DNA from: Candidatus Hydrogenedentota bacterium
GTDB lineage: Bacteria; Hydrogenedentota; Hydrogenedentia; Hydrogenedentales; SLHB01
Assembly (NCBI GenBank): GCA_016209895.1
Contig: JACQVH010000256.1
Coordinates: 1-45,820 of the forward strand
Reading direction: 5' to 3'
DNA length: 45,820 nt
Positions 34,110 through 37,214 of this stretch are shown here, piece by piece. The first letter of the stretch is position 1; the number at the start of each line of letters is the position of its first letter. Below the pieces are notes generated by a model. That model saw nothing but the letters and a program-made list of their open reading frames with translations, had not been told where the DNA came from and searched no databases. The position numbers were made by a program, and so were the translations under genes.

Positions 34110-34137
34110 AGAGGCAATGACTGCTAAAGGAGATACC

Positions 34138-34566
34138 ATGCCGTCTACGCCTTCGGCTTCAAGCCTAAGCCGGGATGCGCTTCTGAACGCATTGCGACGT
34201 CTGTCCGATGAATTGGGTCCGCACGGCGTTACCGGGGAAATTTGCCTGTGCGGCGGCGCGGTGATGGTATTGGCCTTCTCCGCGCGTCACGAAACTACCG
34301 GGGCGCAACTGCCACAGTTCCCGCACCTCCGCGTGAGCATGCCCGTACCCGAGTACGTCCTGGCTATGAAATGCATGGCAGCGCGGATCGGTGGAACCGG
34401 CGGCGAGCAGTCGGATGTGCCTGACATTGTTTTCCTTATTCATCATCTGCAACTAAAGACCGCGCAAGAGGTCCTCGATCTGGTCGCGCGATACTATCCA
34501 GGTAATCGCATCCCGGTACGGACACAGTACCTCATAGAGGGACTGTTCCAGGAGGGCAAAACATGA
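34138..34566 (+). CDS. Nucleotidyltransferase-type antitoxin-like protein with internal deletion
   Basis: 142 residues. The start has a strong AAGGAG 5 bases before ATG. It matches small nucleotidyltransferase-fold proteins (DUF6036-like): GEICLCGGAVMVLAF at the N-terminus, and VPEYVLAMKCMAARIGG, SDVPDIVFLIHHL and ARYYPGNRIPVRTQYLIEGLF at the C-terminus. In the family as I know it, the segment between these ends contains STKDVDA, the metal-binding Asp pair and about 50 further residues. Here LAFSAR runs directly into HETTGAQLPQFPHLRV. The reading frame is kept. It therefore appears to be a truncated, probably non-catalytic member. The stop overlaps the next gene by ATGA. Confidence 0.7.
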   Translation: MPSTPSASSLSRDALLNALRRLSDELGPHGVTGEICLCGGAVMVLAFSARHETTGAQLPQFPHLRVSMPVPEYVLAMKCMAARIGGTGGEQSDVPDIVFLIHHLQLKTAQEVLDLVARYYPGNRIPVRTQYLIEGLFQEGKT

Positions 34567-34943
34567 GACCGCAGACGTTGGCGGAAGTGGCGCGACTTGT
34601 CATCGGCGGCGATTCATTCGACCGATGTTTGGCAAACTTCCTTGACGATTTCTATGCGGAGCCGAAAGAGTCTGCTCTCACCGAAGCGCCGCTTCTGCTG
34701 GCGCCCAGCTTCGGAGAACTGGGCCAAGTCCAAGACGCTTACCTCGCGGCCACGGCGGAGGAACTCGCTCGACATATAGGCTTTTCCATGCCGGCGTGGG
34801 CCTTCGGCGAAGAGCGCCGGCTAAGAAGAGCATGGTTCGCATCCCCCTTGGAGGCGCTGCGCGCGGTGCTGCTCGTAGAAAGTCCGACAGGCTTCCGATC
34901 TCGCAATCTTTTTGTGAGTGAAAACGCGTTGACACGCGTTTGA
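34563..34943 (+). CDS. Partner protein of the nucleotidyltransferase-like gene
   Basis: 126 residues. The start overlaps the preceding stop (ATGA at 34563-34566), so the pair is translationally coupled, as in many toxin-antitoxin operons. Visible blocks: LAEVARLVIGGDSFDRCLANFLDDFY, APLLLAPSFGELGQVQDAYLAATAEELAR, FSMPAWAF, then the distinctive RAWFASPLEALRAVLLVES and FRSRNLFVSENALTRV. I recall this last block from proteins encoded next to similar nucleotidyltransferase-like genes. No enzymatic motif. Which of the two would be toxin and which antitoxin is not evident. Confidence 0.65.
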   Translation: MRPQTLAEVARLVIGGDSFDRCLANFLDDFYAEPKESALTEAPLLLAPSFGELGQVQDAYLAATAEELARHIGFSMPAWAFGEERRLRRAWFASPLEALRAVLLVESPTGFRSRNLFVSENALTRV

Positions 34944-35009: not shown

Positions 35010-36467
35010 CTAGCGGTTCCGCTCGGGCATTCGCGTGACTTCGCGGCGTACGGTCATCACCGCCAGCACAGTAAGTCCAATCGCGCAGATCGTGAAGATA
35101 ATTCCGTTGGGCGTACGGCCGGTCCATGGGGCCCAAGGCCAGGGGAATCGGAAGAACGCGAAATTCAGCAAGAAATATATCCAAGTCGTCAGGAGCAGTG
35201 CGCGGCGCGTGAAATCTCGTCCCGTCTGACCGGCGTCGGATTGCCGTTTGAACCAGACCGCCGCCGCCGTGGCGATAATCAACGGCACAATCAGATACAG
35301 AATCCACCCCGCTGGGACGTTGATCGCATGCGACTCATACACGAGATTGCGCACCGTCTTACCGGTAATCGGCACGAGAGTCACCGGGAGTGCCAAAAGG
35401 TATGGCCACCAGCGTCCGCCAACCACCGCCATAATGGGAAGGACGCCGATGATTAGACCGAGATCGTAGAATGCCTCGATGACGGGAAAGGATAGGAATT
35501 CGGCCGTGACCAGCAACGAAACGTGAACCACGAGTATGGCCCACTCGACGGCGACGGGCAAATACTTTACATCGCGATCATCCACGAATCGAATGCGTTT
35601 CCGATGCAGCCAAAGGCCAAGACCAAGTGTGGCGCCCATGGTCGCGCCGAAGGTGGTTTCCATCATGTTCCACCAGTTCATATTCGGATCGAGCTGCGCC
35701 CACAGGCCCTCGCTGAAGGACTCGACGTTCCAAGCGTGATACGCCTGGAGACATTGGCCCAAGGGAAAGCCAATTGCGCCGCCCAGGACGCCCCATCCGG
35801 CGAGCCGAAGCGCGAGACCATCTTTACGCCACCAACCCGCGTAGGCGACCACGGTTGCAAGTGCGAATAGAAGTCCGCCCCAGAATTCGGGCCGCGGCTT
35901 AAGCGTCTTGATATCCGCGTTCGGTTCCCAATACCAGTGAGCGGAGAAGTAGACCGCGGGTAGAGATTTGTTTTCAGGATAGAACGGTGAATTGAGGAGG
36001 TACAAACCGAGGGCGCACGCCGCAAGTACGCCGAACATCAGCAACAGAAGTTCCAACCAGTGATAGCGAATCCCGCCCAGTCCCATTCCGAGAAAGACGC
36101 CTGCGAAACCGATCCAGAGTCCGCCTTTGATCGCAAGACCGAGCATGCCCCACCGCAGTGCCTCCCAGTTGCCGATCATGGGCGCGTTCTGCGTTAGTCC
36201 GATCGTCTGGCCGTAGGTCATCGTTCCCCCGAACCCGATGGCCACGGTTGCCAGTGCGACCGCGCGCGCTACAGATAGTGAGCGCGCGCGCGGGCACAAC
36301 AGCAAGGTAAGAGTGAGGCTGACGAGCAAGCCGGCGATCATGGCGCCGGTCTCGTGACCGTATTGACCGCGGATACCCCAGCCCATCCCGCCGGCCATGG
36401 CCGCAAACAATACCGGTTGCCACCAGCCTACATCGGTTTCTGATTCGTGTATCACTTCATTGGGCAT
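35010..36467 (-). CDS. Multi-pass inner-membrane protein of unknown function
   Basis: 485 residues with about a dozen hydrophobic segments. Not recognised. Conserved-looking loop motifs are GGMGWGIRGQYGHETGAMIAG near the N-terminus, GGTMTYGQTIGLT, NMNWWNMMETTFGATMGATLG and KTVRNLVYESHAINVPAGW; the glycine-rich first motif within a membrane segment might line a pore. Start: ATG 36467 with a strong GGGGAGG, 5 bases spaced, rather than an upstream in-frame start at 36578 that overlaps the next gene. A transport role is a guess from topology only. Confidence 0.75.
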   Translation of the reverse strand: MPNEVIHESETDVGWWQPVLFAAMAGGMGWGIRGQYGHETGAMIAGLLVSLTLTLLLCPRARSLSVARAVALATVAIGFGGTMTYGQTIGLTQNAPMIGNWEALRWGMLGLAIKGGLWIGFAGVFLGMGLGGIRYHWLELLLLMFGVLAACALGLYLLNSPFYPENKSLPAVYFSAHWYWEPNADIKTLKPRPEFWGGLLFALATVVAYAGWWRKDGLALRLAGWGVLGGAIGFPLGQCLQAYHAWNVESFSEGLWAQLDPNMNWWNMMETTFGATMGATLGLGLWLHRKRIRFVDDRDVKYLPVAVEWAILVVHVSLLVTAEFLSFPVIEAFYDLGLIIGVLPIMAVVGGRWWPYLLALPVTLVPITGKTVRNLVYESHAINVPAGWILYLIVPLIIATAAAVWFKRQSDAGQTGRDFTRRALLLTTWIYFLLNFAFFRFPWPWAPWTGRTPNGIIFTICAIGLTVLAVMTVRREVTRMPERNR

Positions 36468-36546
36468 AGCTACCTCCCCTGTTGAATGACAGTGTTGACC
36501 GGACACGCAAGTTTTGTGAAATGGCGCGAAGAGAATTCGTAACTGC

Positions 36547-36789
36547 CTATTGGTCCGCGGGCCTTTCGACGTCTTCACTCAATCCCTGAAGCAAACGTTG
36601 GCGGACGCCGAGGATAGTCACGCCAACCACTTCTTTTCGGGATTCGTTGTAGCGCAGAATGACTCCCTCGCCGATATCAACACCGAGTGCCGGAATAGGA
36701 TCGCCGACGGAGAGGTACAGTACATCTGCTTCCTCGTCGTAATTCCAAGTGATTCTTTCCGGGTTCTCCAATATCTTTAGCGTGTCCAT
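36547..36789 (-). CDS. DUF2283 small protein, putative antitoxin-like
   Basis: 80 residues, typical for DUF2283: ITWNYDEEADVLYLSVGDP, VDIGEGVILRYNESRKEVVGVTILG. These small proteins are often encoded beside toxin-like genes. The ATG overlaps the end of the upstream gene by 13 bases, with GGAGG 8 bases before it, so translation is probably coupled. Confidence 0.85.
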   Translation of the reverse strand: MDTLKILENPERITWNYDEEADVLYLSVGDPIPALGVDIGEGVILRYNESRKEVVGVTILGVRQRLLQGLSEDVERPADQ

Positions 36790-37088
36790 AAAGTCTTCCT
36801 CCGGGGCGATGGCCGGTTTGTGAAGTACGCGGTCATCACGAAGCCATCGTGAGGGGCCGTTTCTCGGTAGGCCACAACCACAAACTTCGAAGCCAGTGGA
36901 GTGGTTGGGTAGTATCGAATTGCCAGGAGCTCGCCAAAATCACCTTCTTGAATCGAGTCCAGAGACTCCACCGTTTCCAACAACATGATACGCTGACCTT
37001 CCATTTCGGGAGGGCGTTTGCGAATATGCGCCCAGCGCTCCTGCGTCAGGCGGATTGGCACCCTATTCTTCGAGTAGACCAAAACCAT
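36777..37088 (-). CDS. Small RelE/barnase-like (PBECR-type) protein, putative toxin
   Basis: 103 residues. Pattern: RLTQERWAHIRKRPPEMEG, LLETVESLDSIQEGDFGELLAIRYY, KFVVVAYRE, GFVMTAYFTNRP. This resembles small nuclease-like proteins grouped as PBECR (phage-barnase-EndoU-ColicinE5/D-RelE-like) and often paired with a DUF2283 gene; the assignment is from memory of the pattern. ATG 37088 begins MVLVYSKN; a GTG at 37130 would add 14 residues, but its Shine-Dalgarno is only 2 bases away. The family's usual second histidine or lysine catalytic residues cannot be verified by eye. Confidence 0.65.
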   Translation of the reverse strand: MVLVYSKNRVPIRLTQERWAHIRKRPPEMEGQRIMLLETVESLDSIQEGDFGELLAIRYYPTTPLASKFVVVAYRETAPHDGFVMTAYFTNRPSPRRKTLWTR

Positions 37089-37214
37089 AAACTTGATCTG
37101 GCGATTATGCTCCTCGCCTAGTCCCGACACCGCTCCAATCTGGCTGGTAGCAGTATATCAAAACGGACCCATCAAAAAGCTCATCCCCTTGGCGAATTCA
37201 CCCTTGGGGACGCC

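What the first reader, a model, noticed from the sequence alone, without database searches (positions are those of the whole stretch)
34138..34566. In-frame loss of the catalytic core of a nucleotidyltransferase-type antitoxin-like protein
The N- and C-terminal blocks of the family are intact, but the STKDVDA/metal-binding region and about 50 residues between them are absent. LAFSAR joins directly to HETTGAQLPQF. In the family, as I recall it, both LAF-AR and FLSARHE occur, so recombination at the shared SAR codons would produce exactly this. The frame, strong ribosome site and coupled partner are kept, so it may be a still-used binding-only form, or a decaying system.
Basis: partly seen in the sequence, partly recalled or inferred. 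Interest (0 to 1): 0.6.

Follow-up and report, generated by a model that had tools for sequence, protein, structure and literature searches.

The report
Toxin-like enzyme missing its catalytic core
A bacterial gene pair that looks like a toxin and its antidote carries a clean 45-codon in-frame deletion that removes the enzyme's metal-binding catalytic motif while the partner gene stays intact; across relatives it is repeatedly the enzyme that is lost and the partner that survives, which suggests a disarmed toxin rather than a damaged antidote.

Summary
Confirmed: window 34138-34566(+) encodes a 142-aa member of a DUF6036-like nucleotidyltransferase (NTase) family that lacks exactly 45 codons found in its closest relatives (L002, L003; 68-72% identical elsewhere). 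The lost block holds the metal-binding motif TKDVDA, present in all 36 other full-length homologues of my alignment. The start, Shine-Dalgarno sequence, both flanking blocks and the ATGA overlap with the downstream partner (34563-34943) are kept. The missing block is nowhere else in the genome assembly.

Corrected: the NTase is probably the toxin, not an antitoxin. Its nearest solved relative is MenT1 and its motifs match AbiEii. Forty-eight of 49 motif-intact NTases sit beside the partner (the 49th has a weak partner-like match). The four partner-less NTase-like genes all have broken motifs. The reverse state, intact partner with broken or missing NTase, occurs in about 15 loci. Some partners carry helix-turn-helix or basic tails, one sits beside a Fic gene, and in mycobacterial plasmids partner and NTase are fused.

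Best reading: a disarmed toxin with a retained antitoxin. A binding-only role is not excluded. Age and selection could not be measured, reads are unavailable, and no full-length structure could be modelled.

The parts
34126..34131 (+). Shine-Dalgarno sequence of the truncated NTase gene (within AAAGGAGATACC-ATG)
   Evidence: sequence
34138..34566 (+). core-deleted DUF6036-like nucleotidyltransferase, 142 aa; predicted inactive toxin component
34138..34287 (+). retained N-terminal block: helix 1, motif I (CGGAVM) and the Arg that opens motif II (FSAR)
   Evidence: aligned to L002 residues 1-54
34287..34288 (.). deletion junction (FSAR / HETTG): 45 codons (135 nt) present in L002 and L003 are absent, including TKDVDA and WLND; placement can slide by a few bases
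   Evidence: codon alignment
34288..34563 (+). retained C-terminal block with AbiEii-type motif III (LAMKCMAAR) and motif IV (D-x-x-D, SDVPDIVFL)
   Evidence: motif definitions from PMC3985639
34550..34555 (+). AGGAGG Shine-Dalgarno sequence of the partner gene, inside the NTase C-terminal codons (coordinates to within a base or two)
34563..34943 (+). intact partner gene, 126 aa, start overlaps the NTase stop (ATGA); candidate antitoxin

Best explanation
The locus is a two-gene toxin-antitoxin-type module, probably acquired by horizontal transfer. Its upstream gene encodes an AbiEii/MenT-like nucleotidyltransferase (DUF6036-like) and its downstream, overlapping gene encodes a small, mostly helical protein that is the likely antitoxin. 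A single 135-nt in-frame deletion removed the catalytic motif II core (TKDVDA, both metal-binding aspartates) and the following WLND segment. The protein should no longer bind metal or transfer a nucleotide, so the toxin is disarmed. The antitoxin-like partner stays intact, either because too little time has passed, because it still represses or protects, or because the operon's translation signals remain. Shown: the deletion, its extent, the lost motif, the intact partner and the conserved pairing. Inferred: loss of activity (by analogy with AbiEii mutants), toxin/antitoxin polarity (comparative genomics) and the reason the remainder is kept.
For: Clean 45-codon gap against full-length relatives. 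The motif is universal in 36 full-length homologues. In AbiEii, D67A, D69A or even D-to-E changes abolish toxicity, and D67A/D69A greatly reduces GTP binding (PMC3985639). Nearest PDB relative is MenT1 (8an4, E=0.0031); PADLOC and Pfam matches are AbiEii, DUF6036, DUF2204. Pairing: 48 of 49 motif-intact NTases have the partner 1-169 nt away, in both gene orders. The four partner-less NTase-like genes (L038, L060, L062, L067) all have broken or missing motifs. Intact partners occur without an intact NTase in about 15 loci, several with C-terminal NTase remnants (L004, L061, L085, L013). Antitoxin-like features of the partner: XRE-type HTH tail with an MqsA_antitoxin match (L098; a similar tail in L066), basic GRP tails, fusion to the NTase in mycobacterial plasmids, a Fic gene beside it in L097. 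The window partner departs from consensus at only 1 of 29 conserved columns. Horizontal gain: none of 67 other genomes of the phylum has the NTase, while the closest relatives lie in other phyla.
Against: No experiment has tested toxicity in this family. MNT-type NTases can be antitoxins (HepT-MntA). The retained blocks show no excess of substitutions at conserved columns (0 of 18 at the 85% level), and the window branch (0.25) lies between those of L002 (0.13) and L003 (0.32), so there is no positive sign of decay; a recent deletion or continued constraint would look the same.
Confidence: 0.66

Rival explanations
1. The short protein is a retained, functional pseudoenzyme: it still binds the partner and acts as a co-repressor or decoy, without catalysis.
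For: Frame, start site, overlap and all highly conserved residues outside the deletion are kept; no acceleration on its branch. Other catalytically broken family members persist as open frames, e.g. L067.
Against: Only one genome shows it; no clade of short forms was found in about 1,250 genomes searched with the NTase. In known NTase folds the lost block carries a core strand and helix, so stable folding is doubtful (general knowledge); the model of the full-length relative was too poor to judge (pLDDT 56). A recent deletion gives the same pattern.
Confidence: 0.2
2. The NTase is the antitoxin (like MntA, which AMPylates HepT) and the partner is the toxin; the deletion removed the neutralising activity.
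For: MNT-fold proteins act as antitoxins in HEPN-MNT systems (PMC7641770, abstract listed). The two genes are strictly paired.
Against: Intact partners survive without an intact NTase in about 15 loci, whereas motif-intact NTases essentially never lack the partner. The partner has no convincing match in Pfam, NCBIfam or PDB, HEPN included. Partner tails look like DNA-binding antitoxin tails. The NTase motifs and nearest structure are those of AbiEii/MenT toxins.
Confidence: 0.08
3. The deletion is an assembly or consensus artefact, or a minority strain variant, in a draft genome.
For: The genome is a fragmented assembly (312 contigs, 93.8% complete) and no reads can be checked here.
Against: The gap is exactly in frame, at a sensible junction, with undisturbed flanks; the shared words possible at the breakpoints (about 9 nt by inference) are too short to make a typical assembler skip 135 nt. 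The missing block is not on any other contig.
Confidence: 0.06

Closest known systems
AbiEii (DUF1814/PF08843), toxin of the type IV AbiE system
   Same: NTase superfamily; motif I hGG, motif II R...DxD, motif III K...R, motif IV DxxD all recognisable in full-length relatives; two-gene operon with a partner
   Different: Relatives are shorter (about 175-190 aa) and match AbiEii only weakly (2 of 17 at E<0.1 in Pfam); partner shows no AbiEi-type match; the window copy lacks the motif II aspartates
MenT1/MenA1 of Mycobacterium tuberculosis (PDB 8an4, 8an5, 8rr5)
   Same: Best solved-structure match of the family, over its C-terminal half (E=0.0031); MenT1 D41, K137 and D152 mutants are inactive (PMC11375011); small antitoxin partner
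   Different: Low sequence similarity; partner not detected as MenA1-like; the window copy lacks the Thr-x-Asp region that in MenT1 carries T39 and D41
DUF6036 (PF19502) nucleotidyltransferase family
   Same: All 17 full-length relatives tested match it at E<0.1; plasmid homologues are annotated DUF6036
   Different: The window protein itself matches no Pfam model; L002 and L003 score below the gathering cut-off
HepT-MntA (HEPN-MNT) type VII system
   Same: two-gene module with a minimal NTase
   Different: partner shows no HEPN match and the loss pattern gives the opposite polarity

Membership tests
DUF6036/AbiEii-type nucleotidyltransferase superfamily | homology over N- and C-terminal blocks | tested here: met
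   68-72% identity to full-length relatives over shared columns; clade support 0.998 with L002 and L003
DUF6036/AbiEii-type nucleotidyltransferase superfamily | motif I (GG) | tested here: met
   CGGAVM kept
DUF6036/AbiEii-type nucleotidyltransferase superfamily | motif II metal-binding DxD | tested here: not met
   deleted in the window, present in all other full-length members aligned
DUF6036/AbiEii-type nucleotidyltransferase superfamily | motifs III and IV (K...R, DxxD) | tested here: met
   LAMKCMAAR and D-x-x-D kept
DUF6036/AbiEii-type nucleotidyltransferase superfamily | profile match at the curated cut-off | tested here: not met
   no Pfam or NCBIfam match for the window protein; closest relatives below the gathering score, mycobacterial homologue L005 above it
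NTase toxin-antitoxin module | conserved adjacent partner gene | tested here: met
   48 of 49 motif-intact NTases have the partner within 169 nt
NTase toxin-antitoxin module | toxicity of the NTase and neutralisation by the partner | not testable with these tools
   needs expression assays
NTase toxin-antitoxin module | asymmetry of loss (toxin lost, antitoxin kept) | tested here: met
   about 15 partner-only or broken-NTase loci; no clear motif-intact NTase without a partner. L059, counted as partner-less, has a weak adjacent partner-like match (E 0.15)
HEPN-MNT system | HEPN-domain partner | tested here: not met
   21 partner homologues: no HEPN match in Pfam or NCBIfam; partner model without a PDB fold match

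The most novel reading that the evidence does not exclude
A catalytically dead, core-deleted NTase has been kept as a working regulatory subunit: it still binds the partner and tunes repression of its own operon or shields the cell from related intact modules, i.e. a toxin turned into a non-enzymatic regulator, within an NTase-partner toxin-antitoxin family for which I found no published description.
Probability: 0.15. Interest if true: 0.6.

Novelty: new variant of a known kind. Interest (0 to 1): 0.38.

Why it matters
The deletion itself is an ordinary way for a toxin-antitoxin pair to be disarmed. The comparison made to check it is worth more: it points to a widespread pairing of DUF6036-like NTases with a partner family that no library used here describes, found in the phyla of the Pedosphaera, Planctomycetia and Gammaproteobacteria loci and on actinobacterial plasmids, with swapped gene order, fusions, DNA-binding tails and one Fic neighbour. 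It gives a testable prediction of which component is the toxin.

Tried and rejected
Codon-model test for relaxed selection on the window branch: synonymous sites saturated, no power. Parsimony counts by codon position show more first- and second-position changes on the window branch (29 against 20 and 25) and fewer third-position changes (20 against 33 and 28); too weak to use. AlphaFold model of L002 with a three-row alignment: pLDDT 56, unusable. Partner model: pLDDT 79, all helical, but no PDB fold match. eS19 ribosomal-protein matches of the partner profile (E 0.02 and weaker): judged chance. Viral contigs: no relatives of either gene. Synteny of one flanking gene in family relatives: homologues found, but none of the other tested window neighbours beside them, so no empty site could be shown. 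Paper search for DUF6036: no hit. The '1 TGA' flags on L052 and L053 fall at the edge of the reported match; the NTase frames themselves are open.

Full report
Observation. The ORF exists as described: 142 codons from ATG 34138 with a good Shine-Dalgarno sequence, ending in an ATGA overlap with a 126-aa partner gene at 34563-34943. The nearest full-length homologues found, L002 and L003, have 191 and 192 aa. Codon alignment shows one contiguous gap of 45 codons in the window gene between FSAR and HETTG, with 72% and 68% identity elsewhere. The missing block is not encoded elsewhere in the 5.34-Mb assembly, and the window is a whole contig of it.

How unusual is it? An alignment of 36 full-length homologues has the motif T-x-D-[VI]-D in every row; only the window lacks it. 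Searches with the NTase in 388 genomes of the phylum of L003, 392 of that of L004 and 399 of that of L002 gave no second core-deleted form of this type. Losses of other kinds do occur: C-terminal remnants beside intact partners in L004, L061, L085 and L013, N-terminal loss in L060, motif loss in L062 and L067, a motif IV change in L038.

What the protein is. The window protein matches no Pfam or NCBIfam model, but its full-length relatives match DUF6036 (17 of 17), DUF2204 and AbiEii, PADLOC AbiEii models (12 of 17) and, in the PDB, MenT1. The four motifs defined for AbiEii (PMC3985639) can be placed: motif I GG kept, motif II Arg kept but its two aspartates deleted, motif III LAMK...R kept, motif IV D-x-x-D kept. 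In AbiEii each motif was required for toxicity, and the double aspartate mutant lost most GTP binding. In MenT1, D41A and K137A are inactive and T39 is the site of antitoxin-induced phosphorylation (PMC11375011); the equivalent T-x-D region is inside the deletion. The window protein is therefore very likely inactive (inference from these studies).

Which component is the toxin? Of 49 loci with all motifs intact, 48 have the partner within 169 nt, 32 as NTase-partner and 16 as partner-NTase. The remaining one, L059, has a weak partner-like match next to it, and L057, scored broken because of a D-to-E variant in motif IV, also has the partner. The four NTase-like genes without a partner (L038, L060, L062, L067) all have broken or missing motifs. 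A Fisher test of intact/broken against partner/no partner gives p=0.0014, on loci that are not all independent and were partly chosen by search. Conversely, intact partners occur with a broken NTase or none at all in about 15 loci, including L012, L014, L016, L018, L050, L082, L087, L097, L098 and L100. A partner homologue carries an XRE-type HTH with an MqsA_antitoxin match in L098, a similar tail occurs in L066, and basic GRP tails mark a large subclade. The partner is fused N-terminally to the NTase in mycobacterial plasmids (L006, L017), and in L097 it sits directly before a Fic/DOC gene. It is comparative evidence, not an assay.

State of the window copy. All ten near-invariant residues outside the deletion are kept, none of 18 columns conserved at the 85% level is violated, and the branch length is ordinary. 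The partner departs from consensus at 1 of 29 conserved columns, among the best of 65. So either the deletion is recent or the remainder is still constrained; synonymous saturation prevents a test. A deletion is in frame by chance one time in three, so the kept frame alone is weak evidence. Because the partner's start overlaps the NTase stop, with a purine-rich Shine-Dalgarno-like stretch in the NTase's last codons in all four closest loci, keeping the frame may simply preserve partner translation; this is an inference.

Origin. No other genome of the same phylum tested (67 genomes) has the NTase. One genome of the same order, G032, has a distant partner homologue with no NTase found beside it (L050). 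With the closest relatives in other phyla, horizontal acquisition is the simplest reading. The breakpoint may have used a short repeat: relatives read S[APT][RKN]H at the right side and FSAR or FAAR at the left, but no relative seen reads FLSARHE.

Verdict. A retained binding-only role remains possible. The larger by-product is a recurrent DUF6036-like NTase-partner module for which I found no published description in the open-access library searched.

Noticed in passing
L097 (G300 contig 46) 679-1866, - strand: The partner family sits directly upstream of a Fic/DOC-family gene (Pfam Fic E 1.6e-21) instead of the NTase; the same genome also holds an NTase-partner pair. Suggests that the partner can be combined with different toxins.
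   Followed up: partly
L098 1477-2103 (+) and L066 partner ORF: Partner proteins with a C-terminal XRE-type helix-turn-helix; L098 has an MqsA_antitoxin profile match (just below its cut-off).
   Followed up: partly
L006 1826-2938 and L017 1688-2767 (Mycobacterium plasmids): Partner and DUF6036 NTase domains fused in one protein of about 360-370 aa.
   Followed up: partly
L013 888-2878 (Azospirillum plasmid): A TnpB gene (1172-2461) lies between an NTase C-terminal fragment and the intact partner gene.
   Followed up: no
L067 1446-1973 (G213 contig 7): Full-length NTase-like paralogue that has lost motifs I and II and has no partner, in a genome that also holds an intact pair.
   Followed up: partly
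window 36547-37130, - strand: Small gene pair: a DUF2283 protein (36547-36789, Pfam E 4e-8) overlapping a 117-aa protein without a Pfam match; looks like a second small toxin-antitoxin-type pair about 1.6 kb from the NTase module.
   Followed up: no
window 35010-36578, - strand: 522-aa gene (looks membrane-associated by eye) without a Pfam match; strong homologues (57-65% identity) in several genomes of the same family.
   Followed up: partly
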